Shown here: one piece after another, positions 50,082 to 64,000 of the stretch | Layout: each line of letters begins with the position of its first letter | Position numbering within the stretch: position 1 is the first letter of the stretch | DNA from: Noviherbaspirillum soli | Lineage (GTDB): Bacteria > Pseudomonadota > Gammaproteobacteria > Burkholderiales > Burkholderiaceae_D | Assembly (NCBI RefSeq): GCF_015352955.1 | Contig: NZ_JACYOX010000004.1 | Span: 1 to 64,000, forward strand | Direction: 5' to 3' | Length of the DNA: 64,000 nucleotides | The notes under the pieces: generated by a model | What the model saw: the letters and a program-made list of their open reading frames with translations, nothing else | Databases searched by the model: none | What the model was told of the DNA's origin: nothing | Position numbers and translations under genes: made by a program

Positions 50082-50639
50082 ATGGAAATCACGTTTGGCT
50101 CTTTGACCCTGGTCTTTTTCATTCTCGCCGTCGTCTTCGTGATCAAGACCATCAAGGTCGTGCCGCAGCAGCATGCCTGGGTGGTGGAGCGCCTGGGCAA
50201 GTATCACGCGATACTCGGGCCTGGCCTCAATATCGTGATTCCCTTCATCGACCGGGTGGCCTACAAGCACATCCTGAAGGAGATCCCGCTGGATGTGCCG
50301 CCCCAGGTCTGCATCACGCGAGACAACACCCAGCTGCAGGTGGACGGCATCCTGTATTTCCAGGTGACCGATCCGATGCGCGCTTCCTATGGCTCCTCGA
50401 ACTATGTCGCCGCGATCACCCAGCTGGCGCAGACCACGCTGCGCTCCGTGATCGGTCGCATGGAACTGGACAAGACTTTCGAGGAGCGCGAGCACATCAA
50501 TACCGCCATCGTCAATGCGATCGACGAGTCGGCGGCGAACTGGGGCGTGAAGGTATTGCGCTACGATTATGGCTGGAAGGCGAAAATGGGCTCGATCGTT
50601 TTGGGTAGGACAGCGTACGAAAGTTTCTTTGTTGCATAA
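50082..50639 (+). pseudogene. qmcA: QmcA-like SPFH/band 7 protein, truncated by island insertion
   Basis: The first 161 residues are a typical QmcA/stomatin-like protein: one N-terminal membrane segment, then the SPFH domain (VERLGKYHAILGPGLNIVIPF, LQVDGILYFQVTDP, ITQLAQTTLRSVIGRMELD, NWGVKVLRY). At about 50565 the homology stops within the stretch where relatives continue with the C-terminal coiled coil. The next 24 residues (from DYGWKAKM to SFFVA) are read from the inserted DNA. Full-length relatives have around 300 residues, so the scaffold-forming part is missing. The lost 3' part is not found up to 64000. The truncated product may be made but is probably unable to oligomerise normally. 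Confidence 0.85.
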
Positions 50640-50699
50640 AATCAAGGTTGGCCGGGTTGCGATTTGCAACGCAAAGACGAACAATAATAGTCATTCCGC

Positions 50700-52118
50700 T
50701 TAAAAACTATCTAATTCGTCATCTTCCATATTATTCCGCTCGTAACCATTATCCGGTTTTTTAGGCATTTGCAAACGTTTCTCCCTCAGCGAAAGCTCAG
50801 CTTCTTTCAACGCAATGCGATTTTCTCGTAATTCAAGTTCCGTGCGTCTTTTGGCGATCGTCGCCTCGTCAGTCTCAGCTTCGACTGCATTCAGTGCATA
50901 AATATATGCCTCTTGAGAGGCCATGCTGGAATGTCCGAGTTTTCTGGCAACTGCCATTTGCACGCCGTCTTTAGTTACCATTCCACCAGCTTCACGTGTT
51001 CTTCTTATTGTGTCCACGCCTTCTTGATTTGCGCGTGCGCGTCTTATCGCAGGAGCGCCAGTTCTTCGTACAGTAATTCCAGCTTTCCTAAATCCTTTTC
51101 GGATAATTTCACGCATTGCTTTGGCGGTCATTGCCTTCCCTGTTTTAGAGTTAAGAAAGACAGCATCGTCTACTAAGGAATCATTTACGCCAAGAGTGGT
51201 AAGTAAGTCTGCCCGTGGACCATCTATGAATTTCCGTATCTCCAAGCAAAGCGAATAACTCAGCATAAAAGTATTTTGGTAGCCCAGTTTTTGCATGAAC
51301 GGCCTTACTGGAAACTCTTTTGCGGTATTGGTCTCCCGTTCTAACTCGGCGAGCGGAGGGATTTGTGACGTCGTTAATGAATTTGCAGACTCTGCTCGCA
51401 AAGCGGTTTCTCGCAGGATAGCGATAAAGAGTGAGTCCCGCTCAGCTATGAAAAGGCTCTCGGTACTTTGCGTTACTATCGTATTTAAAAGATTAAGTTC
51501 ATTGTCCGTTGGGAAATGCTTAATGGTCTTTCTTGATATGGGTACCGGTAATGTGAGGGGCCTGTAAAGAACCGATCTCACTTTTTTTGAAAGTTTATTA
51601 GGCTGGGTACGCGAGCTTTTATGATTTAGTACCCCTTTGCTATCTTTGTCGGTCGAAAGCAGAGTGTCAATTCGACATCTTGGCCCTATTACATCAGAGA
51701 CCATCTTCTCGGATTGAGCCCATTCATAGAAATCGTAAATGGCATGAATTTTTCGGTTCACATTAAGGTTCGCACCAGCTTCATCAATTTGTTCATATTT
51801 TTGATTTGCTTGCCAGGCCTTGACCTTCAAAACCTCTTTCTCTATAAATTCTAGGAAACGCTCATCGTTAAAGCTTTTCCAGTCGATCTTGTACTTATAC
51901 AAGTAGGTTGCGAAAGCCTTGAGGTCACGGGCACGTGCATCAAACGTGTTTTTATTCGTCTCTTTCGATTGGCGTTTTGGTTTGGCGAAATCCAACATGT
52001 AATCATTGAGCCAGACCAACAGTTCACCATCAGAAGTGAAATATACGGGAAGCTTATACGACGTGAATAAGTCTTTTCCAACCCATACCAACTCAATGCC
52101 GATTTCTTCGCTAGCCAT
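50700..52118 (-). CDS. Tyrosine-type site-specific integrase with C-terminal coiled coil
   Basis: A 472-residue recombinase, the gene nearest the left end of the island. An N-terminal core-binding (SAM-like) domain (about 25-135) contains ARARDLKAFATYLYKYKID. The catalytic domain has box I arginine in RETALRAES (about 233), a box II-like RRAR near 354 in place of the usual HxxR, and LGHSSMASQEAYIY (about 390-406) with the likely nucleophilic tyrosine. The last 60 residues are a charged coiled coil (RRTELELRENRIALKEAEL), unusual for simple integrases and possibly for contact with the partner proteins. It overlaps the helicase gene by eight bases. Low GC confirms foreign origin. Confidence 0.85.
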   Translation of the reverse strand: MASEEIGIELVWVGKDLFTSYKLPVYFTSDGELLVWLNDYMLDFAKPKRQSKETNKNTFDARARDLKAFATYLYKYKIDWKSFNDERFLEFIEKEVLKVKAWQANQKYEQIDEAGANLNVNRKIHAIYDFYEWAQSEKMVSDVIGPRCRIDTLLSTDKDSKGVLNHKSSRTQPNKLSKKVRSVLYRPLTLPVPISRKTIKHFPTDNELNLLNTIVTQSTESLFIAERDSLFIAILRETALRAESANSLTTSQIPPLAELERETNTAKEFPVRPFMQKLGYQNTFMLSYSLCLEIRKFIDGPRADLLTTLGVNDSLVDDAVFLNSKTGKAMTAKAMREIIRKGFRKAGITVRRTGAPAIRRARANQEGVDTIRRTREAGGMVTKDGVQMAVARKLGHSSMASQEAYIYALNAVEAETDEATIAKRRTELELRENRIALKEAELSLREKRLQMPKKPDNGYERNNMEDDELDSF

Positions 52119-54405
52119 GTTTTCTCACCTTTAGTCTTAGGCCTACGATCCTGTTAAACGACTTTGGGGGTCGAACCACATGCTTATTCATGGTGTTCCA
52201 GTCGCCTATTAGAACAATCTGTTTTCTTGCACGAGTAAACGCAGTATAAAACCAGGTATTATCTAACACTGCAGATTCATTCGATACGATAATGATCCGT
52301 TCGAATGCGCTTCCTTGTGATTTGTGGCAGGTAATAGCATAAGCCAATTCTAAGCGGTCGAAATCGTCTAATGCCATGTTTCGACGGACCCCGTCAAGCT
52401 CCGCAATGGCCACGATCTCAACTGCCTTTTCTTCATCGTCCCATGTCTGCGATCCGTACTGGGGTTTCGAAAGAATTTCCACGATGCGGCCCATACTTCC
52501 ATTCCATAAATCTCGCGCTGCAAGATTTCTAGTAAAAATGACTGGATCGTCTTCTGCAAATTTTTTGTACTGAGTGATCTCTAAGCTTTTTCGGCTGGAA
52601 GTAGAATAAACATTCTGCAAATTTTCGTTAAGGTTTGCTACACCAACTGCGGGGCTCTCTGGGCTAGCACGGTTGATAGCAGCGATAATCTGAACTTCGC
52701 CTTTTGTTTTCATTTCGCGATAGGCGCGAATAATCGCATTTTGAATTTCGTTTCTTTCAGTGCAAATAAAAAGGACGCCTATGTCGGTGGTAATCATCCG
52801 TCCAGGGGCGTCCGGCACATATTGACAACGTGCCATGTGGGGCATCACCTGTTCGCGGATAAGCCTAGCGGCTGCTGGGATGCCAGTTTCTACAGCAGAT
52901 CTATGAACTTCCGTTAGATACGTCTGCGGTACTTCCGGCGACTTGGCCAGGATGTGAAAGGTTAATCCAGCCCCGATCGGCGGAAGTTGATAGGGATCTC
53001 CTACAAATACGATTCGTGAGCCCGCAGGGATGAATTTTAGTAGTTCATACAAGGTCGAAGTGTCAACCATACTGGCTTCATCGATGACAAAGTACGCACC
53101 CGGTTGGGGGGAAACTCGACCCTTTTTCCTCTCAAGGACAAATTTCGCAATTGTGCTGGCATGTGCTTGCCCAGTTGCCTCACGGATCTGCTTTGCAGCT
53201 TTACCAGTCGGTGCCATCGGAAAAATAGCGCCACCTTGCGAAATTATTTGATCAAATAATGCGTTAAGGATCGTTGTTTTGCCGGTGCCTGCATCGCCTG
53301 CAATTATAGATATCGGTGCACTTAGCGACATTTTTACCGCTAATTTTTGCTCTTCATTTAATGCGAAGTCGGGAGAGCTACTTCGGATGCGAGTCGTTTC
53401 TTCAAAATTCTTAAGCCGAAATAAATCGAATTTTGCTTGGAAAAGTGTGTCTTGAAACTCTTCTCGCCCCTCGATCATCGCGACTAACCGCTCGGATATT
53501 GTGCGTTCCATCAGAGCCACGCCACGCAGTTGAACAAGTATTTCGTTACCTGATCCCTCAGCGAACTCGACGGCTAAATTTGCTGCTGCGTTTTTGAGGA
53601 TATTGTCATTACTTGTTCTGGTCCGGCCGAGCAGCAAGTCAAGGCGCTCACTAAGTTTGCTTAAAGTTGCCGCTGTATTGCCGTTATCCCATTCCTGGTA
53701 CATCGCACACTCGAACGCTGCGAGAAGGCGGCGACTGTCGTGTTGGGCAATGTTGAGTTTACGGATGGCCAAATTATCGACTTTGGCAAACGATGCGGCT
53801 GCGCTGTTGCTTGGTACGAACGCCAATAGACGGTAAGGATTATCTTCTATGGCTTCGACGGCGTCCGCTCCCCAGGCTTGTCTTGCCCGGCGAGCCAACG
53901 TTTTTGAAAAGCCATGTACTTGCATCCACTGCATGGCTTTCGATTCGGCTAAGACCTCCTGCCATCGACGCAGCAAAATCGGAATAAATTCAGGTGCTAG
54001 CAACCTTTTATTCTTTTTATCTAGTAGCGCTGAGAGAAGATCAACTTTCCCTTTATCTAATGCATCATGTAGATCTATAGATTGTTCCACCGCACTACGC
54101 CACATTGCACTAGCTTTCGCTCGACCGATGCCATCAAACTGCGTGGCAAGGAAATCAATGAGCAACTCTCCGGACGGCATAATCATGCACGCTTCATGAG
54201 CGAGCAGTTGCCAGCCATATCGGCTATTTTTTTCATCAATAAACGGTTCGCCGCTGACTTGCCATACTTCCCCTGGCAGAGGTCGTGCATCGTTGACGTC
54301 GGTCTGAAGGCAAACGCGGTAGAGTTTGTCTCCACGCCTCATCGTGAAAAACCTGCTCCACGACTTCTCCACGATGCCTGAAAAGGTAGGGTAGGGAGAT
54401 TGCAT
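52111..54405 (-). CDS. RecD2-type superfamily 1 DNA helicase
   Basis: A 764-residue 5'-3' helicase-like protein. The N-terminal part has helix-hairpin-helix segments (FDGIGRAKASAMW, HGFSKTLARRARQAWG) as in RecD2. Motor motifs are Walker A GDAGTGKTT (about 365), DEASMVD (about 440), GDPYQLPPIG (about 464), CHKSQGSAFE (about 691) and YTAFTRARKQ (about 718). It lacks a nuclease domain and relaxase motifs. It lies between the two small coiled-coil genes and the terminal integrase, with one base and an eight-base overlap at its borders, so it is part of the mobility operon. A role in unwinding or replicating the excised element is inferred. Confidence 0.88.
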   Translation of the reverse strand: MQSPYPTFSGIVEKSWSRFFTMRRGDKLYRVCLQTDVNDARPLPGEVWQVSGEPFIDEKNSRYGWQLLAHEACMIMPSGELLIDFLATQFDGIGRAKASAMWRSAVEQSIDLHDALDKGKVDLLSALLDKKNKRLLAPEFIPILLRRWQEVLAESKAMQWMQVHGFSKTLARRARQAWGADAVEAIEDNPYRLLAFVPSNSAAASFAKVDNLAIRKLNIAQHDSRRLLAAFECAMYQEWDNGNTAATLSKLSERLDLLLGRTRTSNDNILKNAAANLAVEFAEGSGNEILVQLRGVALMERTISERLVAMIEGREEFQDTLFQAKFDLFRLKNFEETTRIRSSSPDFALNEEQKLAVKMSLSAPISIIAGDAGTGKTTILNALFDQIISQGGAIFPMAPTGKAAKQIREATGQAHASTIAKFVLERKKGRVSPQPGAYFVIDEASMVDTSTLYELLKFIPAGSRIVFVGDPYQLPPIGAGLTFHILAKSPEVPQTYLTEVHRSAVETGIPAAARLIREQVMPHMARCQYVPDAPGRMITTDIGVLFICTERNEIQNAIIRAYREMKTKGEVQIIAAINRASPESPAVGVANLNENLQNVYSTSSRKSLEITQYKKFAEDDPVIFTRNLAARDLWNGSMGRIVEILSKPQYGSQTWDDEEKAVEIVAIAELDGVRRNMALDDFDRLELAYAITCHKSQGSAFERIIIVSNESAVLDNTWFYTAFTRARKQIVLIGDWNTMNKHVVRPPKSFNRIVGLRLKVRKHG

Positions 54406-54406
54406 T

Positions 54407-54865
54407 TTAATTATTGAAGGAGTTACAACTTCCGTTCGGCGACTGTCGCTGGTACGGGTGGATCACGCGTCCTGTACGCAGCAAATACTCCTCGGCTTGG
54501 TCTCTGCGGAGCGTCTGCTCTCGGACTGCTTCCAATTCAATTGTCTTCAACAATAAAGCTTTTTCTAATGTTTTCACACGCGCTTCAAGTGCTCTCATCT
54601 CCTTGTTGGAATGACTTGGCTTAGCTTCTGTCATAGCGACTTGCCCGCTAAACTCCAGTAGTCGCGCCATTTCCTGTCCTAGAGCTTTGTTTGAATGAAA
54701 GCGCTCCCGCGCAAAACCCAGTTTCTCAGCTACCGCTGTGACGTTCACTTGCCCATGCCTCATTGGAACTTCGGCTTTGCCTTGTAGTGCGTCGTCGACA
54801 AACTCCTTCATCTTCTTTACAAATGTTGCCGCCTTTTCGTTATTACTGGCCGATTCACGTTTCAT
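54407..54865 (-). CDS. Small helix-turn-helix/coiled-coil protein of the mobility operon
   Basis: A 152-residue protein with a probable helix-turn-helix (VNVTAVAEKLGFARERFHSN, about 40-60) and a coiled coil (KEMRALEARVKTLEKALLLK, about 94-120). The layout resembles the small third protein (TnpC-like) encoded with paired tyrosine recombinases in Tn554-type transposons; this is a similarity of layout, not proven homology. It overlaps the upstream gene by 11 bases and ends one base before the helicase start. It could bind the element ends or help choose orientation, but that is inference. Confidence 0.7.
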   Translation of the reverse strand: MKRESASNNEKAATFVKKMKEFVDDALQGKAEVPMRHGQVNVTAVAEKLGFARERFHSNKALGQEMARLLEFSGQVAMTEAKPSHSNKEMRALEARVKTLEKALLLKTIELEAVREQTLRRDQAEEYLLRTGRVIHPYQRQSPNGSCNSFNN

Positions 54866-55619
54866 TCGGTGACCCTTTGATGTTGTTTAGCCCAATCACC
54901 TTTTGTCTTTCTTTCACCAAATCGCGAACTTTGGCTTCAAGCAACGCAATTTGTTCATCTTTCTCAGCAAGAAGCGCTTTCATCTCTTTTTCTCGGCGTA
55001 TGTACCTTTCTTCCGTTTCTTTCCATTTTGCTAACAATGCCCGTAGTTCTTTCCGATCGGCCAGAGACTGTAATGCAGCGCTTTCCCGCTGGCTATCCAT
55101 GGTTTTAAGTCGGCAGTTCAATTCAGAGATCAAGCCATGCTTGTTTTCAGACTCGAACTGTCTTTCTTTCGTCGCCTTAAGAATTTCTAGCGCCCGATTT
55201 AAGTTTTGTTTTAACGTAAAGTAATGCGCCTTTTCCTCTTTGTTTCTTATTTTCTGAATTCCCCCTGGTGTCAGGGCTGCTGCGTCGTAACTGCCAAATG
55301 CGTCTACATGATCTGGCTGGATAAGCTCTTGTTGAAGCATGTCGTTTAATGCTTGAGCGATGATTCCATCACTGTTATCTGTCCGCTTCCAGCGGCGCAC
55401 CTCATTTTCAGAATCAGGCACGTGTTCAAGAATCTTTTGTCCATCTTGATCAAACACGTATTTTCCTTCTGCATCTCTTTTCCAGGGAACGCCTGTTCGA
55501 CCCCAATATTCAAGGAGCGCTACTTTCACCTCAATTTTCTTTCTTGCAGTGCTGTGCGACACCTGCGATATATGGGTGGATGAAAAAGCGGCAGAATCTT
55601 TTTTTGAATCTTTTTGCAT
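54855..55619 (-). CDS. Coiled-coil protein of the mobility operon
   Basis: A 254-residue soluble protein. The N-terminal half (about 20-130) is mixed and contains VALLEYWGRTGVPWKRD and RRWKRTDNSDGII, perhaps a winged-helix DNA-binding domain. The C-terminal half is a long charged coiled coil (about 130-245) ending near RDLVKERQKVIGL. I do not recognise the family for certain. Its place after two recombinase-like genes fits a three-gene mobility module such as the described gamma-mobile-trio (GMT) modules, with this gene as a candidate GmtX counterpart. That link is a hypothesis. Confidence 0.65.
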   Translation of the reverse strand: MQKDSKKDSAAFSSTHISQVSHSTARKKIEVKVALLEYWGRTGVPWKRDAEGKYVFDQDGQKILEHVPDSENEVRRWKRTDNSDGIIAQALNDMLQQELIQPDHVDAFGSYDAAALTPGGIQKIRNKEEKAHYFTLKQNLNRALEILKATKERQFESENKHGLISELNCRLKTMDSQRESAALQSLADRKELRALLAKWKETEERYIRREKEMKALLAEKDEQIALLEAKVRDLVKERQKVIGLNNIKGSPNET

Positions 55620-55660
55620 AGTCTTTTAAAATTGGGTATCCAGGCATCAGCGCCCCGTTT

Positions 55661-58012
55661 CTATGCTGGAACAGGGAATATCTGAATAGTTATCTTTTTA
55701 TTTCTTTCATACTCAGCGAGGTGATATTGCTTCGCTTCATGCAAACGCGCTAACTTCATCTTTGCGTGTTCGTGTTTCAAGGCAGACTGGCTAAAATCAT
55801 TTAGGATATTCTCGAAGTGAGCGATCTCGCCTTCGAGAAAAATCATGGTCCCGCTATGGGTACCATGATTGCTACAGCTACTACACAAGGTGCAAGATGC
55901 CTGGCTTCGATCGATTTTTCCTTCTTTCGCACAATGCGCTTCGTGTGCCTCGTAATGAGCGCTCTCTCTTGCGAAGCAGATGCCATGGGCAAGTGGCTTT
56001 GGTACATGTCCTTCCCGAATTAATTTTTTGGCAAGCGGCATAAATCTTTGTGCGTCCGTTAGCACGGCGTCGGTGTTGAACTGCTTTACATAGTCAGCCA
56101 CACGTTTGATGAGAGAGCGAACGAAGCCACCAGAAGCGTTACCCTCAGCAGCTTTCATAATGTTTCGCAGCATATATTCTTCCGCTACGCTGTCAAAGAT
56201 CTTTATATACTCGACATCAAATTCTTCGATTGCCGTAGCTCCTTTTCCATCAATTTCAACTTCGTGCAGCTTTACTTTTTCCGAAATACTACTTGCGTGT
56301 TCTACAAAGTTCTTATCCGTAATGTAAGTAAAGGTTTTGCTCTCACTGAAGTGAAAAAATTGTTTAGACAAGGCTGAAAGCTGAGGGAAGTCATATCGGT
56401 AAAAATAAAGAACAGCATAGAACCTACGCCACATATGCGGTCGCACTTGTATTAAATTATTTCCGATAACTAATTCTATCCATTTGGGAAGATGTCTATC
56501 TGCTATTTTTGGATCGGTGTAGTTTCCGGTAACAAAGGCTCCTGTTGTGAATCCGATTCTGGCGGAAAATAGTGGCTGGTCATCCGCAACCTGCCCATCA
56601 GAATCTAAATTTGAATAGACTTCGTGGATTCTTTGAAGCACTTCAATAGCTTTGCCCGCCAAAAAGTTAATACCTGTTGTCACATAATCTCTTATCGTTT
56701 TTTCGATATATACCCGCATTGAGTAAACACCAAGTTCTGATTTTTTTAAGCATCCATAGGTAAGTCCAAACTTGTTACTGGCAATTTCCATTTTTCTACG
56801 AGCGGTATTGCTGTAAATCACACAAACACACGCTGACGATAACAAATGGAAAGCCATGATCACATCATCGAAATTTTTAATATTCATGCCTGTGATTTTG
56901 TTAAGGTTTACCCCGGTTTCTTCCCTTATAAGGGCAACCTCATTGGCCACTTTACGAGGAACGTGGTACCAAAGTGAATTCGGATGCTTGATGAGTAGAC
57001 GTTTGGCAGCCTGTCCCAACTTGAAGAAGGCCTCTGCATAGTCGATGACCCATGTTGCGCCAGCAGCCATAATTTTGACGGCGTCATCAAGAGAAAGATT
57101 TTCGGTGCGTCCTCGCGGAGCCGCTTTAAATTTTAGGAAAAATTCTTCAGTAGTGTCAGGAAATGCAAAGAAGCGAATTGTATCGAAGCCCGTAGGAATT
57201 TGGCTTAGTTGGTTGATTGTGTTTGCCACACGCTGCAATGTTGTTACTGATACAGCCTTGACTTCGTATCCTGTGACCAGAAAGTCTGTAACAGGGATGT
57301 TTACAAGGTCCGTAAACTTTTCGATAAAAGGCCGTGGCAGTGAGTTTGTCACTCTCATCCCGATGGCGTTTGACAGAGCGTCTAAATTAAAAACAAATCC
57401 GATTCCGGCCTTCGCAGGCTTTTTTCTGGCTATCAGGTGGCTTAGCAGTGCGGTTTGTCGGTCAATTGGTGATAGTTTTTTTTCATAATCTTCCAGTAAT
57501 TTCATCAGCCGGCTGTTTAGACCGCTTGCCACACCGATACCTATGGCACAGTCCTGCAGAAAATGGTTTACATGATCCCGAGTCAAATCCTGAAATTGAT
57601 AAATATCCTGTTTGCGCATCCAGGCGCACAGCATCTCAAGGTAGGCCAAGGTAACATCAGGAGAGGATGCGGCGCTGCTTTTGCTCAAAACAATATTAAC
57701 CAATGCCTTTGCAGTATTTACGAGTTCCCTTCGGTCGGTGAAGCGCTCGGCCTCCGGATAAATGGATGAGGACGCAATCCAAAATTTATTTAATTCAATT
57801 TGCTTTTCTTCAACCTTCCCGCCGCCTGCATTGTATTTGTAACGGATAACGTCGTCGCTAAAATCCGATACGTAATTTGCATGTTTTACCAAGTCGTGAA
57901 ACGGACTTGTAAATTCGATGATACGCAGTCGCTCTTGTGGCGGGTGACCACTTCCGATGGTGAGTAAATTGTCGACTACTGTGCTTGGCTGATCATCTGG
58001 GGCGTGACTCAT
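55661..58012 (-). CDS. Large divergent tyrosine-recombinase-like protein with cysteine cluster
   Basis: A 783-residue protein. Around residues 395-570 lies a degenerate tyrosine-recombinase catalytic domain: TARRKMEIA (about 402) may hold the box I arginine, RPHMWRRFYAVLYFY (about 520-535) fits HxxR box II, and the segment ending FTYITD (about 565) could supply the tyrosine. The C-terminal part has a cysteine/histidine cluster (CAKEGKIDRSQASCTLCSSC, about 690-720) that probably binds zinc. The long N-terminal half has no domain I recognise. TnpB of Tn554 and GmtZ-type proteins are possible relatives. It lies 13 bases after the 712-residue recombinase gene. Confidence 0.65.
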   Translation of the reverse strand: MSHAPDDQPSTVVDNLLTIGSGHPPQERLRIIEFTSPFHDLVKHANYVSDFSDDVIRYKYNAGGGKVEEKQIELNKFWIASSSIYPEAERFTDRRELVNTAKALVNIVLSKSSAASSPDVTLAYLEMLCAWMRKQDIYQFQDLTRDHVNHFLQDCAIGIGVASGLNSRLMKLLEDYEKKLSPIDRQTALLSHLIARKKPAKAGIGFVFNLDALSNAIGMRVTNSLPRPFIEKFTDLVNIPVTDFLVTGYEVKAVSVTTLQRVANTINQLSQIPTGFDTIRFFAFPDTTEEFFLKFKAAPRGRTENLSLDDAVKIMAAGATWVIDYAEAFFKLGQAAKRLLIKHPNSLWYHVPRKVANEVALIREETGVNLNKITGMNIKNFDDVIMAFHLLSSACVCVIYSNTARRKMEIASNKFGLTYGCLKKSELGVYSMRVYIEKTIRDYVTTGINFLAGKAIEVLQRIHEVYSNLDSDGQVADDQPLFSARIGFTTGAFVTGNYTDPKIADRHLPKWIELVIGNNLIQVRPHMWRRFYAVLYFYRYDFPQLSALSKQFFHFSESKTFTYITDKNFVEHASSISEKVKLHEVEIDGKGATAIEEFDVEYIKIFDSVAEEYMLRNIMKAAEGNASGGFVRSLIKRVADYVKQFNTDAVLTDAQRFMPLAKKLIREGHVPKPLAHGICFARESAHYEAHEAHCAKEGKIDRSQASCTLCSSCSNHGTHSGTMIFLEGEIAHFENILNDFSQSALKHEHAKMKLARLHEAKQYHLAEYERNKKITIQIFPVPA

Positions 58013-58025
58013 TTTTGTCTTTCTT

Positions 58026-60164
58026 CTACGCTGTCTGGAATTGGGGGCCTTGTTCTTTGGTAACTTGTCGCTCTATTTCTTCGTATAAACTTTTATACCG
58101 TATGTTGTTGCGTATGACGTGAGAAAGTGCAATTTGAAACGCAAATGCCTTCACGCCATGCTTTATCCAATGTTCGGAGTTACGTGCGCAAATTTCTTCT
58201 AGGTGATTTCGAAAGTATCGCAGCATCAAAACATTTTCCTTCATGCGGCCTTCCGTGATGATAATTTTTTGCTGTTTGCAGTCATGGCATTGTTCGCCAT
58301 CACAAACCTCACCGGTCTTGATCGTATGATTCGGGCTTTCAGTTGGGCTCATGCATCCGACGCCATTACCAACCGCAGTCAGTTTTTGTTTGATTTCGTC
58401 TGCGTGGGCAGGCCGATTTTGTAACGTAACGATCGGGATAGTCTTAACGTTAATATCTTCGCGTTGAAGGTGATGCGTATATAACGCATCATCGCCGCCG
58501 ATGGCGAACATGATGGTGGCTGCTATCTGGCGTTCAAACTGATTAATGATCGCTTCGTCAAGCCCTGTGAGAACTTGAGCCACATAACCCGCAGAGATCG
58601 CAATATCTGAATGACCGAGCTTGTTCCTTACTTCGAACAGATTTCCATTGCTACGTACAACGACCTGGCATCCAACTTGGCTTCGAAGGTGCTTAAACGT
58701 GTAGTTTGAATTGATATTCCATGCCAGTTTAAATTTATCAAATACTTTTCCCCATGTGCCGATACGCCTTTGAGCGCGGAAACCCTCCAAGCGGTTGGGG
58801 TAGCAGAAAAGGTAGCCTTCGCTGTGAGGCGCGCATGCCCAGTGCTCGCGCAGCCGGTCATAGTTCGATATAAGCATCTCCATTGCATCAAAGGCGGTCT
58901 TTTTAGCACTTTCACCTGGCTGACTCGCATGCTTCACGATGTAGTCGGCATCGTCCTCCAGACCTTCATCGGCAGGCTCCAATGCCTGGTCCTGACCTTT
59001 TCCAGTCTTCTTCTTAATAGGCATTAGTCTCCAGCGTGCGGTTTGCCCTTTCTCTCGTTCACACTGAGAAATATGCAAGTCTTGAAGCGGTTGCGGATTG
59101 AAACCAGTTTCTGACAAAATTAATACCTGGATTGCAACCAACTCGGCTGATCCAAAATAGGAAAGTGCGCACAAAAGATCGGGCAAGAAACTTTTTTTGC
59201 CGCTGAACCCTCTGATCAATTCATCACTGAAATAGTTTGCAACGCGATCCCCGTGGGGATAGACGGTCTTATACTGAGAGATAAAATTCTGCATTTTTAC
59301 GTACACATGCAGTTCCTCTTGAAGAAACTCTGTGACATAAAAGGCTCCAAGCTCTTTGCTATCTATAGCATTCAGTGCTGAACGTTCGGACTCAATCTCT
59401 GACCACCCTTGGCGATGAGGATCCAACACCTGTTGAATTTCTGCGTACCGCTTTGGCGTGAGAAGGGCGGCAAGAGTTGTTAACGCAGCTTTACGCGTTT
59501 CCCAGTAAGTCAACGCTTGAAAGCATTTTTCCTGAAGCTCTGCAAGGCGTGTATCAAGATGCTTTGCTTGCTTGTCCCGCGCTTCCTCGATCGTCTTGAA
59601 CGTAATATCTGTGATCGCGCCAGGGGCTTGGCTGGATGTATCTTCAAATGACGATAGGGTCAATGAACTACTCCGCTTATCGGGTGGCAGCGGGTCCAGA
59701 AAATTCTTTATGTCATGGTAGCGAAAACTGAGGATATTCGAATCAAACCACGCGTCGATTCCAGCCCAAAAAAGCTTCCTAGAATTTAGAATTAATGGCC
59801 TCAAGGCCGATATGTGAGATTTCGAGATCTTGATTGTCTGCTCTATAACAGAGAAAAACTCCCGCATCTCGTTCCGAGTAGGGGGCTTATCCGGGCGCGA
59901 TCCTAAAATCCGAATGACAAACGCAGTATGATGCGCTGACATCGAAGGCAGGCATTGCAGCCCAGCTACGGCTTGTAAATATGCCGGTTCACTCCTTCTG
60001 CTGTTACTGCAGTAATGGAGCCAAGCTGTTTCAAGAAAGCTTTGGTTGGCTATTCTTACTCCAGGGAAACTGTATTTCAATAGCTTCTTACCAACCTTCG
60101 TTGGGGTTTCCACCCAGACGCATAGTTGGTTGTTTTCGCAATAGCCTTGTCCAATAACGTCCAT
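58026..60164 (-). CDS. Large tyrosine-recombinase-like protein, first gene of the mobility operon
   Basis: A 712-residue site-specific recombinase-like protein. The catalytic domain (about 330-540) has ETGFNPQPLQDL where box I usually has ETGxRxxEL, so the first arginine appears replaced by asparagine. Box II KHLRSQVG (about 488) and box III LGHSDIAISAGYV with the candidate nucleophile tyrosine (about 515-528) are intact. A cysteine cluster CDGEQCHDC (about 618) is a likely zinc site. The N-terminal 300 residues contain a probable core-binding domain. GAGAAG precedes the ATG. Its upstream region has a LexA-like operator, so this gene probably heads the operon. Confidence 0.8.
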   Translation of the reverse strand: MDVIGQGYCENNQLCVWVETPTKVGKKLLKYSFPGVRIANQSFLETAWLHYCSNSRRSEPAYLQAVAGLQCLPSMSAHHTAFVIRILGSRPDKPPTRNEMREFFSVIEQTIKISKSHISALRPLILNSRKLFWAGIDAWFDSNILSFRYHDIKNFLDPLPPDKRSSSLTLSSFEDTSSQAPGAITDITFKTIEEARDKQAKHLDTRLAELQEKCFQALTYWETRKAALTTLAALLTPKRYAEIQQVLDPHRQGWSEIESERSALNAIDSKELGAFYVTEFLQEELHVYVKMQNFISQYKTVYPHGDRVANYFSDELIRGFSGKKSFLPDLLCALSYFGSAELVAIQVLILSETGFNPQPLQDLHISQCEREKGQTARWRLMPIKKKTGKGQDQALEPADEGLEDDADYIVKHASQPGESAKKTAFDAMEMLISNYDRLREHWACAPHSEGYLFCYPNRLEGFRAQRRIGTWGKVFDKFKLAWNINSNYTFKHLRSQVGCQVVVRSNGNLFEVRNKLGHSDIAISAGYVAQVLTGLDEAIINQFERQIAATIMFAIGGDDALYTHHLQREDINVKTIPIVTLQNRPAHADEIKQKLTAVGNGVGCMSPTESPNHTIKTGEVCDGEQCHDCKQQKIIITEGRMKENVLMLRYFRNHLEEICARNSEHWIKHGVKAFAFQIALSHVIRNNIRYKSLYEEIERQVTKEQGPQFQTA

Positions 60165-60671
60165 GTGTCTTCTTCTCTATCAATTTATGACGTCCTAATC
60201 CTATTGTATTATTGAAACTAACTTTCATTAAAGTATTCTTGTTTCAAAGTACAGTACAGCGCTGAGTATTAAAGTCAAATAGTGGTGACGTGAAGAAAAA
60301 CGCCTTGTTCGTAGTCTCTCATTGGGCTTTTGCTATTACTGTACATCCGTACAGTATTTATGGCAAGTGCCATTGACTGCGCGTCGTTCAAAAAAGTGTT
60401 TCTTCAATCCTTATAAAAGTTTACAGTGATTCCTAATTGCAATTTAGAGACGACTTGTAATTGGAGGAAATATCTTTAGATGCTAATTTTTAATATTTTT
60501 GGCAATACTTTTAGGGGGAATTTAAATATATAGATAATTATGATTAGGTCCCTAGGATTTTAAATATTAAATATTTGTTTCAACCGTTTGTGGCACCGTG
60601 ATGGTAGGCGCTGGTACATCTACAGTGGCGTAAAAGAATCTAACTCAATAGACACATCAAAAGGAGTAATA
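60165..60671. promoter_or_regulatory. AT-rich control region between the mobility operon and the slipin gene
   Basis: This 507-base stretch has no gene. It holds the LexA-like site at 60337-60356 and an extra half-site copy, GTACAGTAC (60249-60257). A short palindrome ATGGCA-AG-TGCCAT lies at 60360-60373. On the minus strand, TTGCCA and TACAGT spaced by 17 bases form a promoter that the LexA-like site would cover. The 60470-60590 part is very AT-rich and may carry the slipin promoter; I cannot point to one good pair of boxes. Confidence 0.55.
60337..60356. promoter_or_regulatory. LexA-type SOS box upstream of the mobility operon
   Basis: The sequence TACTGTACATCCGTACAGTA has the exact LexA arrangement TACTGT-N8-ACAGTA, with both six-base arms perfect. 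It overlaps the spacer and -10 of a minus-strand promoter candidate for the recombinase operon, so LexA would repress by blocking polymerase and DNA damage would release it. The first start codon is about 170 bases downstream. The site is symmetric and could also affect the slipin gene on the + strand. Confidence 0.7.
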
Positions 60672-61427
60672 ATGATTTTTGAATCCGCGTTTGGGGTGGT
60701 GATCGTTTTTGTAATTTTTATTGTCTTGACTTCGATGCGTGTATATCGAGAATATGAGAGGGGAGTTATTTTTACACTAGGCCGATTCACGAGTGTAAAA
60801 GGCCCTGGGCTCGTCATTATTATCCCTTTTTTTCAGCAAGCTGTAAAAGTTGACCTTCGTACCATAGCAATGGAAGTACCACCTCAGGATGTAATTTCAC
60901 GTGATAACGTTTCGGTAAAAGTAAATGCTGTCGTGTATTTTCGTGTAGAGGATGCATCCCGTGCTGTCATTCAAGTGGTGGATTACCAGAACGCGACAAG
61001 CCAGCTAGCGCAGACAACCTTGCGTTCGATATTGGGCAAACACCAGTTGGATGAAATGCTCGCTGACCGCGAAAAGCTGAACGCCGATATTCGCTCGGCT
61101 CTCGACGCTCAGGCGACGTCATGGGGTGTCACCGTCGCAAACGTGGAGATCAAACAGGTTGACCTCACCGAGTCAATGGTTCGAGCTATAGCTCGACAGG
61201 CGGAAGCGGAGCGGGAACGACGGGCCAAAATCATACATGCCGAAGGCGAGTTGCAAGCGTCGGAAAAACTATACCAAGCGGCCAATACTCTTGCCAAAGA
61301 GCCTCAAGCGATGTTGTTACGCTATTTGGAAACACTCACGGTTATTGGCGCTGAAAAAAACACGACCGTCGTGTTTCCCCTTCCAATGGATCTCGTCGCG
61401 CCTTTTTTAAATCGCAACAAGCCATGA
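60672..61427 (+). CDS. Slipin (SPFH/stomatin-like) membrane protein
   Basis: A 251-residue stomatin-type protein with one N-terminal membrane segment (about 5-24) and a complete SPFH domain (YREYERGVIFTLGRF, DVISRDNVSVKVNAVVYFRV, LAQTTLRSILGKHQLDEMLAD). A C-terminal coiled-coil part (RQAEAERERRAKIIHAEGE) ends in a short hydrophobic tail. AAGGAG supports the ATG at 60672. It is a slipin subfamily member and distinct from the QmcA-like gene cut by the island; it cannot be that gene's missing end. It is the first cargo gene next to the mobility operon. Confidence 0.9.
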   Translation: MIFESAFGVVIVFVIFIVLTSMRVYREYERGVIFTLGRFTSVKGPGLVIIIPFFQQAVKVDLRTIAMEVPPQDVISRDNVSVKVNAVVYFRVEDASRAVIQVVDYQNATSQLAQTTLRSILGKHQLDEMLADREKLNADIRSALDAQATSWGVTVANVEIKQVDLTESMVRAIARQAEAERERRAKIIHAEGELQASEKLYQAANTLAKEPQAMLLRYLETLTVIGAEKNTTVVFPLPMDLVAPFLNRNKP

Positions 61428-62440
61428 TAGTTACCACATCCCGATTACTTTCATCTCACGGTCGTGCGTGGGCAAGCTCTTGTGGATAGAAGGTTGTATA
61501 TGAAGAAGAGTGCAACACGATCTAGGTTCGTGGAAAGCAGAACTATGTAAAGAATTAGAGTGGGCTGGCCAATCGACGGCTGTTTCGGCCAGCCGCCTTA
61601 GTGGTTGGCAGTACAGTGGGATCGCCCGAGTCCGCGTCCGGTTCGTTGATGTGTTATAGGCGAGCGGATAGATGGCGGCCCGCATCGTGCATCTCGGTGT
61701 CGCCATTTGCACCAAGATGCACATATCCTGGTCGCGACTTAAAACATAAAGTGCGATCCCTTTTCTTGGTTGGGTTCTAGGTACGCATGGAATCCCAATA
61801 CCTTTTCGACAGTAAATCAGTTCACTAAATTGTCTAATCCTACGGCATTAATGGTGCGAGCACTGGCGGTTCAAGGCCGACCTTTCAAGCAATCCAGACT
61901 TTATATAAGAATAGGGTCATGCAGGAAAATCTGGATGCTTTGTCAATTGTTTTCCAAATGGCTTGTGCCTGGGTACGCTAAGTTTTCGTTAGTCATAGCG
62001 AAGCACATAAAACGTTAAAGCAGCAGAGTCAACTCTCACGAGATTCACCTCTGAACAAATTTAGTTAAATTGTGTAAGGAAGAGTAAGTAACGTTTGGTG
62101 CTACATTTGGAAATTTGCATACTATGATGCTTGTAATTTTTACAAATGTATCGGACTTTGTGTCCTGATTCGGTAATTTCTTCGTGGTGTTAATACCCGT
62201 AGTTTAGTCCGGCCCACTGTTTGCAGACGTTGGATGGCATCCCATGTATAGGGTCACGATGAATTGTTGAGCGCCGATGTGAGGCTCTATCCCATGGGTA
62301 TTCGGCCGGCAATTTTTGAGCATGCACACGCCAAGCATGCTGGATTGCATGGCTACATGTAGATTGCCCGCTCGCTCGCCGTCGATATCTACAGAGAGGA
62401 TCGGTATGGACAGTAGCCAATTTTCTGAAAGGAGAAAAAC
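61428..62440. other. One-kilobase stretch without recognisable gene
   Basis: Short open frames exist on both strands but none has family character, a good ribosome-binding site and cargo-like codon use together. An 8-bp inverted repeat (GGCTGGCC at 61563-61570 and GGCCAGCC at 61587-61594) may be a weak terminator after the slipin gene. The last 100 bases probably hold the promoter and leader of the DUF305 gene, including a possible 22-codon frame at 62406-62474. The rest may be decayed DNA. Confidence 0.4.
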
Positions 62441-63205
62441 GTGGTTGAGATATTATCTTTCGAGGGAGGCCTGAATAGGCCTTTTTATCCAAGAACCCGT
62501 GTTACATCGGGTGCGATGCGTTCCGTTAGTAAGGTGCTCTTCGCGCTAGGTGCCACTGCAATACTGTCAATAGCGGCTCCTGCCGCAAACGCCAGCGGTC
62601 CAGGTCGAGGTGTGACTGCCGACTTTGAGAAAGCTTATCTTGAATTTATTATTGACCATCACTACTCTGCGTTAAGGATGACTGAACTGGCAGCGGGGAC
62701 CGATCTTCAACGGGACGCTCCCGTTGACAATGCCCAGGAAGGTACCGCTCCAACCCCAAATACCAATCCAACACCGGCAAAGGCAACTGATGATCAAATC
62801 AAGTCTATGTCGCGCCAAGCAAATCGCACTCAACGGGAAGAGATCCTAAAAGCGCAACGGTTCTTGCGGGACTGGTACGGCGTAAACCACACACCACAAT
62901 TGCAGCCGCAAGGACGTCAAGCAATTCAGCAATTGGAACAGACGGCCACAGGCACCGAATTTAACCGCACTTTTCTGCAAACCTTCAGCAATCACCATTA
63001 TCGAGCGCTTTTCCCAAGCTTGGCCTGCCAAGTGAAACGAGACATTGACCATGATGAACTAGAGCGCTACTGCAGCGGTATTGTCCATTCTCAGACGAAC
63101 CAGATTAACGACATGCGAGAGATGCTATGCAAAAAATTCTCAATCTGTGATTTTGTGCCGACGGCAAATCTTGGTCCCGCCCTAAGGCTTATCAATCAGC
63201 CATAG
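62441..63205 (+). CDS. DUF305-family secreted metal-binding protein
   Basis: A secreted protein related to the CopM/DUF305 family, which binds copper or silver in the periplasm. The start is a GTG at 62441 with AAAGGAG six bases upstream, giving 254 residues; a second possible start is the ATG at 62516 (229 residues), directly before the signal peptide (RSVSKVLFALGATAILSIAA, cut after ANA). Two family repeats are seen: FEKAYLEFIIDHHYSALRM and FLQTFSNHHYRALFPSL, each with a His-His pair, and a second-half VHSQTNQINDMREML. Four cysteines lie in the last third. The gene is close to two other copper protein genes. Confidence 0.8.
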   Translation: MVEILSFEGGLNRPFYPRTRVTSGAMRSVSKVLFALGATAILSIAAPAANASGPGRGVTADFEKAYLEFIIDHHYSALRMTELAAGTDLQRDAPVDNAQEGTAPTPNTNPTPAKATDDQIKSMSRQANRTQREEILKAQRFLRDWYGVNHTPQLQPQGRQAIQQLEQTATGTEFNRTFLQTFSNHHYRALFPSLACQVKRDIDHDELERYCSGIVHSQTNQINDMREMLCKKFSICDFVPTANLGPALRLINQP

Positions 63206-63264
63206 GGATGTGATATTTGCCAAATTCTTAAACACCGTGCTGGTGACGCTTAAATGGAGAAGCT

Positions 63265-63597
63265 ATGCCAAATCAACAATATGCCTCGTGTATCGATGCC
63301 TGTAACGCTTGCGCAGACGCCTGCGATTTCTGTGCGACTTCCTGCTTGCAAGAGCAAGACGTCAAAATGATGGCACGCTGCATCGCCTTGGATATGGATT
63401 GCGCCCAAATTTGCCGCCTGGCCGCCAGCTATATGGCTCGTGGGAGCGAACACGCTAAAGCAATCTGTCAGCAATGTGCAGACATCTGCGAAGCTTGCGG
63501 CGATGAATGCGCCAAACATCAGATGAATCATTGCCAGGAATGCGCAGCAGCGTGTAAACGCTGTGCAGCGGAGTGTCGCCGAATGGCAGCCGCCTAA
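63265..63597 (+). CDS. Four-helix-bundle copper-binding protein (Csp-like)
   Basis: A 110-residue protein with 19 cysteines spaced mainly as CxxC and CxxxC along predicted helices (CIDACNACADACDFCATSC, CQECAAACKRCAAECRRM). This is the pattern of Csp copper-storage proteins, which hold many Cu(I) ions inside a four-helix bundle. It has no signal peptide, so it should be cytosolic (Csp3-like). GGAG precedes the ATG. It follows the DUF305 gene by 59 bases and may share its transcript. A hairpin terminator candidate lies after it. Confidence 0.92.
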   Translation: MPNQQYASCIDACNACADACDFCATSCLQEQDVKMMARCIALDMDCAQICRLAASYMARGSEHAKAICQQCADICEACGDECAKHQMNHCQECAAACKRCAAECRRMAAA

Positions 63598-63619
63598 CAG
63601 TAGAACAAGGAGGTCAGAT

Positions 63620-63657
63620 GCTTTGCTTGTCGAGGGATTTCACAAGCAAAGCGTCTT
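63620..63657 (+). terminator. Terminator candidate after the copper storage gene
   Basis: GCTTTGCTTGT (63620-63630) and ACAAGCAAAGC (63642-63652) form a perfect 11-bp stem with an 11-base loop, followed by GTCTTTT. The T-run is short but acceptable for a rho-independent terminator. It lies 22 bases after the stop. Confidence 0.7.
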
Positions 63658-63753
63658 TTCATTTAGAAGAAGCGATCGAAGGTTAGGTCGGAACTTTAAA
63701 TTCCAAACGACGCTTGCAAAGACCCGCAAGATGTAACTTGCCCTGCGACGTGT

Positions 63754-64000
63754 TCAATATGCCTTTGTAATTACGTAATTTGCACCTTCTTTGACAAATT
63801 CGACATTGACGCTTTTGCCAACTGACATCTTATCGAGCAAAGCCTTGTCGCGGACAGAGAACCCCATGGTCATGGCGGGCCACTTAAGGCTCTCGACCGG
63901 TCCATGTGCCAAGGTCACGGTTCCTTTTTGAGGCTCTACGTTTTTTATGACGCCAGTGGCCTTATGTATCATATCGGTATTGCCGGCATCAGACGTGCTT
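63754..64000 (-). CDS. CusF-like copper-binding protein, 5' partial at window edge
   Basis: The visible C-terminal part (at least 72 residues from Met at 63972) is a CusF-type small beta-barrel: GVIKNVEPQKGTVTLAHGP, then the metal-site motif WPAMTMGF, with the tryptophan and two methionines of the Cu(I) site and a histidine before it. The frame stays open from 63972 to the window end with residues like those before a mature CusF domain, so the real start and a signal peptide probably lie beyond 64000. CusF passes Cu(I)/Ag(I) to a CusCBA-type efflux pump; a pump may be encoded just outside. It is convergent with the copper storage gene. Confidence 0.85.
   Translation of the reverse strand, partial: STSDAGNTDMIHKATGVIKNVEPQKGTVTLAHGPVESLKWPAMTMGFSVRDKALLDKMSVGKSVNVEFVKEGANYVITKAY

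What the first reader, a model, noticed from the sequence alone, without database searches (positions are those of the whole stretch)
50700..60164. Six-gene operon combining two divergent recombinases, two coiled-coil proteins, a RecD2 helicase and a third integrase
All six genes lie on one strand with gaps of 1-41 bases or small overlaps, so they form one unit. Three carry tyrosine-recombinase domains, of which two are large (712 and 783 residues) and have added cysteine clusters. A RecD2-type helicase within the same operon is not part of the classical Tn554 or RIT recombinase-trio layouts. The first three genes resemble a described GMT-type module by order and size, while the helicase and terminal integrase seem to be an extension. 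It may be a new mobility architecture with its own unwinding step.
Basis: partly seen in the sequence, partly recalled or inferred. Interest (0 to 1): 0.82.

Follow-up and report, generated by a model that had tools for sequence, protein, structure and literature searches.

The report
Mobile island with helicase-linked recombinase trio
The six genes are the likely integration machinery of an 87,000-base metal-resistance island that has jumped into a conserved bacterial gene; they belong to a divergent family of multi-recombinase islands in which a helicase gene is intact in some members, dead or missing in others.

Summary
The six-gene operon is real and is the recombination module of a precisely bounded 86,991-bp island (contig 50567-137557) inserted inside a paraslipin (qmcA-like) gene. 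A sister genome has the empty site. Both ends carry a 6-bp core (CTACGA) flanked inside by inverted TTATGGCT arms. Genes g2 and g6 keep the tyrosine-recombinase catalytic residues; g1 has lost the first arginine, as reported for GInt GinC.

It is not a GMT system: g1-g3 fail the GmtY/Z/X models. It is a separate family with a g1-g2-g3-g6 core. The small gene g4 and the RecD2-like helicase g5 are an optional pair, also found behind gmtYZX and in a rhizobial recombinase family; recombinase-linked helicases form one side of a 100/100-supported branch (19 rows). So the helicase is no novelty of this operon, and the "terminal integrase" is core.

Three helicase states exist in the family: intact (window, Alteromonas, G1356), full-length without ATPase motifs (two loci), absent (at least five). 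Three relatives sit in one GNAT-type gene and carry a complete diverged copy of it; the window island carries an SPFH gene. Circularisation, transfer and the helicase's role are inferred.

The parts
50082..50566 (+). 5' fragment (161 codons) of the interrupted paraslipin/qmcA-like SPFH gene, the insertion target; its 3' part resumes at contig position 137552, outside the window
   Evidence: 98% identical at protein level to the intact 308-aa gene of sister genome G003; DNA alignment to four of four relatives stops at 50566; remainder found at C49:137552-139069
50561..50566 (.). left 6-bp core CTACGA, identical at the right end (137552-137557) and in the empty site
50567..50576 (.). left inner arm TTATGGCTGG; the right end reads TTATGGCTTG in inverted orientation (13 of the first 18 positions equal)
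   Evidence: at least 13 of 18 in 20 of 400000 random position pairs; first 8 identical in 5 of 400000
50700..52118 (-). g6: tyrosine recombinase of ordinary size, catalytic residues kept (His of HxxR is Pro here); remotely like SE IntA
   Evidence: (hhalign 95.3%, 333 columns)
52111..54405 (-). g5: RecD2-like SF1B helicase with Walker A, Walker B, III and VI motifs intact
54407..54865 (-). g4: small protein of the VPA1267 kind, partner of the helicase
   Evidence: family alignment hhalign 97.1% (E 6.1e-11) with VPA1267, 96.9% with the rhizobial counterpart; alone it reaches only E 0.08 to NF040697
54855..55619 (-). g3: small protein, coiled-coil-like by eye; core gene of the family
   Evidence: blastp to L038, L080, L081, L082 counterparts
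55661..58012 (-). g2: large tyrosine recombinase, R-K-HxxR-H-Y plus invariant C-terminal cysteines
58026..60164 (-). g1: large tyrosine-recombinase-like protein without the first catalytic Arg, with C-terminal Cys/His cluster
60588..61427 (+). SPFH (slipin-type) gene beside g1; possible stand-in for the interrupted SPFH gene
   Evidence: Band_7; 38% identity over 198 aa to the intact target protein
50567..64000 (.). part of the 86,991-bp island that lies in the window; it continues to contig position 137557
   Evidence: G+C 0.44-0.56 in 3-kb windows against 0.59 and 0.69 in the flanks

Best explanation
The operon is the integration/excision module of an 87-kb site-specific mobile genomic island. 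Shown: the island interrupts a conserved SPFH gene, is bounded by a 6-bp core with inverted arms, and carries three tyrosine-recombinase-type proteins, the only integrase-like genes found in it. Inferred: g2 and g6 cut and rejoin DNA at the 6-bp core, g1 (no first Arg) is a structural or regulatory subunit, g3 assists, and together they join the ends into a circle and insert it into a conserved coding sequence, as in SE and GInt islands. Also inferred: g4 and the RecD2-like helicase are a dedicated accessory pair that opens or remodels DNA at the recombination junction, for example so that a single-strand-exchange product can be replicated (copy-out); this is helpful rather than essential in the family. 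The island carries copper/metal resistance genes and a Pycsar-type defence operon.
For: Empty site in G003 and exact junctions. No Phage_integrase hit on contig C49 among 14 in the genome. Catalytic residues in g2 and g6, no Arg at the first catalytic column in 9 of 9 g1 rows. The same core operon beside independently mapped insertions: one GNAT-gene site in G984, G910 and G1034 with 6-bp cores and (A/C/T)TATG arms; codon ~65 of a comM/yifB-like gene in G017 and G814, one end only. Six-gene order in Alteromonas and G1356. Recombinase-linked (11 rows) and stand-alone RecD-like helicases (8 rows) separated by a 100/100 branch.
Against: No direct evidence of excision, circles or transfer. The window operon points outward (g6 next to the end), whereas g1 is next to the end in 5 of 5 mapped relatives, so the module may have been inverted or rearranged. 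The integrase screen did not report g6 itself, so it could miss other diverged integrases. Helicase ATPase motifs are lost in 2 relatives and the gene is absent in at least 5. g1, g2 and g3 have no detectable sequence relation to the one SE tested. Arms agree at only 9 of 18 positions in G910. The trees rest on few, long-branched rows.
Confidence: 0.78

Rival explanations
1. The operon is a divergent Gamma-Mobile-Trio (GMT) system with an added integrase.
For: Same position of a VPA1267-like gene and RecD2-like helicase behind a pair of recombinase genes; g4 related to VPA1267.
Against: g1, g2 and g3 give no hit to the GmtY, GmtZ and GmtX models at E 0.1, although the same models score 559, 1041 and 252 bits on a true GMT; no hhalign match of g1, g2 or g3. 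g6, a core gene here, has no counterpart next to the helicase in the annotated GMT loci opened.
Confidence: 0.12
2. The helicase and g4 are passengers (repair or defence genes) without a part in recombination.
For: Absent from 4-gene relatives; ATPase motifs lost in L080 and L081.
Against: Of 19 plasmid loci opened around helicase hits (of 327 records), 10 are multi-recombinase modules and 9 are not, and the two sets separate on one branch of the tree; the pair recurs in three recombinase families; L080 and L081 homologues remain full length. Two of the ten were opened because g2 matched, so the sample is biased.
Confidence: 0.25
3. The island is an inactive remnant; the module no longer works.
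For: Operon orientation differs from the relatives; the His of the g6 HxxR motif is Pro.
Against: All six ORFs intact, both ends present with identical cores.
Confidence: 0.25
4. The operon is cargo, and another enzyme moved the island.
For: Only 29 of 74 island ORFs of 100 aa or more were given to domain searches (9 in the window; 20 beyond it), and the Pfam integrase screen is blind to g6-like proteins.
Against: No other Phage_integrase hit on C49; the same core operon sits next to an insertion end in 5 mapped relatives.
Confidence: 0.06

Closest known systems
Strand-biased circularizing integrative elements (SE; intA-tfp-intB-srap; PMC10214605)
   Same: Two catalytic recombinases (one ordinary, one large), one recombinase-fold protein reported to lack the catalytic motif, a small protein; split attB, imperfect inverted repeats, 6-bp spacer; g6 remotely like IntA.
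   Different: Other gene order (g1-g2-g3-...-g6); g1 keeps the Tyr; no detectable relation of g1, g2 or g3 to Tfp, IntB or Srap of the one SE tested; helicase pair; 57 and 87 kb in the two elements with both ends on one contig against a reported median of 15.7 kb (abstract).
GInt islands (ginABCD; PMC5385486)
   Same: Three recombinase-type proteins plus a small one; one lacks the first arginine; 6-nt staggered core; large cargo (up to at least 70 kb reported).
   Different: Gene order (third recombinase is last, behind the small genes); sequences of GInt proteins were not at hand, so relatedness was not tested.
Gamma-Mobile-Trio systems (gmtY-gmtZ-gmtX)
   Same: VPA1267-like gene and RecD2-like helicase follow the recombinase genes.
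   Different: GmtX/Y/Z models not met; the annotated GMT loci opened have no g6 behind the helicase.
Rhizobial multi-recombinase plasmid modules (L040, L094; unnamed)
   Same: VPA1267-like protein (E 1.3e-10) and RecD2-like helicase at the end of a recombinase gene cluster.
   Different: Two annotated recombinases first, then 785/786-aa and 151-aa proteins; no relation of these to g1-g3 found by hhalign.
RIT and Tn554 (PMC3414803, passages)
   Same: Several tyrosine recombinases acting as a set; Tn554-type elements pair a long and a short one.
   Different: RIT: three adjacent overlapping recombinase genes; Tn554: tnpA-tnpB-tnpC; the word helicase does not occur in the main text of that paper.

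Membership tests
GMT | GmtY (NF040693), GmtZ (NF047926), GmtX (NF040692) | tested here: not met
   No hit at E <= 0.1 for g1, g2, g3; the models work on a true GMT; hhalign no match; no NF040692 hit in the own genome
GMT | VPA1267-like gene and RecD2-like helicase downstream (seen in 6 GMT or GMT-like loci here, not a published criterion known to me) | tested here: met
   g4-VPA1267 hhalign 97.1%
SE | Split attB in attL and attR, inverted repeats, 6-bp spacer | tested here: met
   criteria from PMC10214605 (passage)
SE | intA-tfp-intB-srap order with Tfp and Srap homologues | tested here: not met
   order differs; only g6-IntA matches in one SE, L102
SE | Strand-biased circularisation without empty site | not testable with these tools
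   needs DNA of the host
GInt | ginABCD order, recombinases first, small gene last | tested here: not met
   against PMC5385486 (text parts 1-2 of 6)
GInt | One of three recombinases lacks the first arginine | tested here: met
   g1; GinC statement
GInt | Sequence relation to GinA-D | not tested
   no GInt sequence fetched
RIT | Three adjacent, overlapping recombinase genes | tested here: not met
   g3-g5 lie between g2 and g6; definition
Tn554 | tnpA, tnpB, tnpC: two recombinases and one helper | tested here: not met
   three recombinase-type genes; DUF6262 hit of g4 is below its cut-off; a link of DUF6262 to TnpC is recalled
RecD2 (equivalog) | TIGR01448 above 500 bits | tested here: not met
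   344.3 bits; RecD2-like, separate branch

The most novel reading that the evidence does not exclude
A dedicated branch of RecD2-like helicases, paired with a VPA1267-like adaptor, is a portable accessory module of several otherwise unrelated multi-tyrosine-recombinase elements. It drives or remodels the single-strand-exchange intermediate (copy-out), and in some lineages it has turned into an ATPase-dead structural subunit before being lost. The elements insert inside conserved genes and bring a diverged stand-in of the gene they break, whose att site no longer matches, so that the host is not harmed and the stand-in resists re-insertion.
Probability: 0.35. Interest if true: 0.78.

Novelty: new variant of a known kind. 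Interest (0 to 1): 0.6.

Why it matters
How SE-like and some GInt islands move without leaving an empty site is unresolved. A family with the helicase pair intact, motif-less or absent beside the same recombinases is a natural experiment on whether unwinding or replication is part of that cycle. The stand-in gene copies would explain how large islands can settle inside conserved genes. The window's island also carries metal resistance and anti-phage defence.

Tried and rejected
Close relatives of g1 in genome contigs: none. Window g2 and A5 in viral contigs: none. A5 in genome contigs: one locus, Massilia brevitalea, the same locus as L080. NF040692 was searched in 299 genomes on a wrong guess about its name; it is GmtX; 4 of 299 genomes matched, the own genome did not. 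'A plain GMT': rejected. 'Helicase as a novelty of this operon': rejected. I first read L080-L082 as lying at the 3' end of a GNAT gene; sister genomes showed that this gene is a carried copy and that the insertion is inside the resident gene. Papers on the helicase link: none found in the open library; the GMT paper (Mahata 2024) is not held. Of the 28 other A1-positive family genomes, 17 were looked at in 18 regions: 7 regions (L076-L082) hold the core operon; 11 (L083-L093) hold more distant g2-like genes, some with a g6-like or g1-like gene, and were dropped from the counts; 11 genomes were not opened.

The structure prediction never completed, so the recombinase fold of g1 and g2 rests on aligned motifs only.
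Full report
OBSERVATION. I call them g1 (712 aa), g2 (783), g3 (254), g4 (152), g5 (764, RecD2-like) and g6 (472). Pfam and NCBIfam do not name g1, g2 or g3; g6 scores 18.5 bits to Phage_integrase (cut-off 27.1); g5 scores 344 bits to RecD2 (cut-off 500) and has the HHH_RecD2 domain.

THE ELEMENT. The window is the start of contig C49 (209,255 bp) of a 105-contig genome. Alignment to four same-genus or same-family genomes stops at 50566 in four of four, inside a gene whose intact form in G003 codes for 308 aa (the name paraslipin/qmcA is recalled, the SPFH/Band_7 domain is). The rest of that gene resumes at C49:137552. The junctions read ...GCG-CTACGA-TTATGGCTGG... and ...CAAGCCATAA-CTACGA-GATCAAGG..., the empty site ...GCG-CTACGA-GATCAAGG.... 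Counting one core, the insert is 50567-137557, 86,991 bp. The inner arms agree at 13 of the first 18 positions in inverted orientation; 20 of 400,000 random pairs in the island did as well, and 5 of 400,000 had the first 8 identical. G+C in 3-kb windows is 0.44-0.56 inside and 0.59 and 0.69 in the flanks. Of 59 other genomes searched, 44 have a gene at least 63% identical to the 5' part and all 44 read on for at least 304 aa; the window genome's copy reads 187.

CARGO. Of 74 non-overlapping ORFs of 100 aa or more, 29 were given to domain searches: 9 in the window and 20 beyond it (PADLOC for 8 of them). Found: a P-type ATPase, multicopper oxidase, CopD, cation efflux, DsbD-type and TonB-receptor genes, DUF305 and Csp1-like proteins; RND pumps and further P-type ATPases are read from their sequence starts only. 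At the right end (130978-136419) lies a Pycsar operon: PycC, E1-E2, JAB, TIR effector, PycTM. No relaxase or type IV secretion domain was among the hits, but 45 ORFs were not scanned. Among 14 Phage_integrase hits in the genome none is on C49; that screen did not report g6 either.

THE RECOMBINASES. In alignments of 9 loci, g2 keeps Arg, Lys, Arg and Tyr in 9 of 9 (His of HxxR in 6, the later His in 8), g6 keeps Arg, Lys, Arg, His and Tyr in 9 of 9 (His of HxxR in 8; Pro in the window), and g1 keeps Lys, Arg, His and Tyr in 9 of 9 but has no Arg at the first catalytic column in any row; three rows have an Arg one to three residues before it. A recombinase without the first Arg is what was reported for GinC of GInts (PMC5385486, text part 1), and Tfp of SEs is said to lack the catalytic motif (PMC10214605, section 3 part 1). 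g2 has invariant C-terminal cysteines; g1 has a Cys/His cluster in 6 of 9 rows. Structure prediction could not be completed, so the fold itself is inferred.

RELATIVES. tblastn over 72,556 plasmids found g2 relatives in 4 records: Alteromonas mediterranea (2), Methylibium petroleiphilum, Rhodovastum atsumiense. A g2 alignment matched 29 of 392 same-family genomes and 5 of 399 same-order genomes; a larger alignment matched 2 of 369 same-class genomes. All three counts include the window genome. Six-gene order g1-g2-g3-g4-helicase-g6: window, Alteromonas L038, G1356 L167 (its helicase is the closest found, 35% over 806 columns), L080 = L103 Massilia brevitalea and L081/G984. Rhodovastum L037 has g2, g4, the helicase and a g6-like integrase, with further genes. 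Four-gene order g1-g2-g3-g6: Methylibium L039, L078 (g3 fused to g2), L079 (g2 split into two ORFs) and L082; L076 is cut by a contig end within g1; L077 has g1, g2 and a 174-aa piece of g6, and no g3 was found. Neither has room for a helicase.

WHAT THE HELICASE IS. Records annotated gmtY/gmtX carry the order gmtY-gmtZ-gmtX-VPA1267-AAA ATPase, and the ATPase is this kind of helicase; pKAZ2 and a Photobacterium plasmid have it too, a diverged form is in Vibrio vulnificus, and two rhizobial plasmids have it behind another recombinase set. g4 as a family is related to VPA1267 and to the rhizobial small protein (hhalign 97.1% and 96.9%). I opened 19 plasmid loci around helicase hits, of 327 records: 10 are multi-recombinase modules and 9 are not. 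The ten are among the 29 best-ranked hits, as is one of the nine (H32); the other eight come from a spread down the ranking. Two of the ten (L037, L038) were opened because g2 matched. One of the nine is a 547-aa piece beside mercury genes, another has a single small recombinase 2.4 kb away. In a tree of 19 rows the 11 recombinase-linked and 8 stand-alone helicases are split by one branch with 100/100 support; L042, L095 and the Salmonella piece were left out, L167 was fetched later, and several rows have long branches. Similarity and context were not sampled independently.

THREE STATES. Walker A, Walker B, III and VI are intact in the window and L038 (DET for DEA in Walker B), and Walker A, B and VI in L167, where III was not looked at. 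In L080 and L081 all four are gone, although the proteins remain 697 and 693 aa long and align to each other at 29% identity over 694 columns. The gene is absent in the 4-gene loci. Trees of g2 and of g6 (10 rows each; L079 missing from the first, L077 from the second) put the two motif-less loci together (100/99); L082, which has no helicase, falls beside them in the g2 tree (91/91) and is unresolved near them in the g6 tree. The three states need 3 changes in either tree, shuffled mean 4.5, as low in 11 and 12 of 200 shuffles. Helicase activity is therefore not strictly needed in the family; a structural use of the protein is possible.

TARGETS AND STAND-INS. In G984 the element runs from about C1:1804750 to 1862257 (57.5 kb) and splits a GNAT-type gene at about codon 86; the remaining 3' part is 91% identical to the sister gene. 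G910 and G1034 are split at the same site, with the two ends on different contigs; for G1034 no sister empty site was read. All three carry a complete GNAT-type gene just behind g6; these carried copies are 50-62% identical to each other and 46.5-50.5% to two resident genes. The attB core GTGTTC is kept at the far end in 3 of 3, while the g1 end has GAGCTC, GTGAAG or GAACAG. An asymmetric 6-bp footprint is a stated SE property, though there the attB core is at the intA end. Carried copies read GTTTTC and GTCTTC at that place (two of three seen). Arms match at 13 of 18 in G984 and 9 of 18 in G910, where the first 6 are identical; G1034 was read by eye. G017 and G814 are inserted near codon 65 of a comM/yifB-like gene (name recalled; 84 and 93% protein identity of the remaining part to sister genes); their far ends were not found. 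In the window the broken gene is an SPFH gene, and an SPFH gene (38% identity over 198 aa) lies beside g1 on the inner side of the module; with one case and low identity this parallel is suggestive only.

A DIFFERENCE. In 5 of 5 mapped relatives g1 is next to the insertion end and the operon reads inward; in the window g6 is next to the end (133 bp) and the operon reads outward.

INTERPRETATION. Works like: SE and GInt islands, with two catalytic recombinases, one altered recombinase, a small helper and a 6-bp core. Is a member of: neither, by the tests done, and not GMT; GInt sequences were not tested. I file it as a further family of this kind with an optional helicase pair shared with GMT. 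Steps shown: insertion, ends, module content, conservation. Steps inferred: circle formation, transfer route, division of labour, helicase function.

LITERATURE. Seen: PMC10214605 (abstract, section 3 part 1 of 2, section 12, passages), PMC5385486 (parts 1-2 of 6), passages of PMC12715929, PMC12259885, PMC3414803 and PMC10734457; the rest in search listings only. The GMT paper was not readable, so I cannot say whether it already describes the helicase.

Noticed in passing
contig C49 130978-136419, L028:6978-12419 (outside the window): Right end of the island holds a Pycsar operon with E1-E2 and JAB genes between the cyclase and the TIR and PycTM effectors; ubiquitin-like accessory genes are, from memory, typical of CBASS.
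   Followed up: partly
60588-61427: SPFH slipin-type gene carried beside the recombination module of an island that has broken an SPFH gene.
   Followed up: partly
L080, L081, L082 (GNAT gene behind g6): Three islands carry a full-length diverged copy of the gene they interrupt; the two copies whose site was seen differ from the attB core.
   Followed up: partly
L078 and L079 (G017, G814): Two four-gene relatives are inserted at the same codon of a comM/yifB-like gene, a gene recalled as a target of Acinetobacter resistance islands.
   Followed up: partly
G000:C77:2942-5354: Three consecutive Phage_integrase matches in the own genome, a possible RIT element.
   Followed up: no
62441-63597: DUF305 protein and Csp1-like copper-storage protein next to the module.
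   Followed up: no
L116 (Salmonella IncC plasmid): A 547-aa piece of the helicase next to a mercury operon, possibly a GMT remnant; 26 Salmonella records matched the helicase.
   Followed up: no
L122:1-2386 (Anabaena plasmid): A VPA1262 family gene near a stand-alone RecD-like helicase.
   Followed up: no
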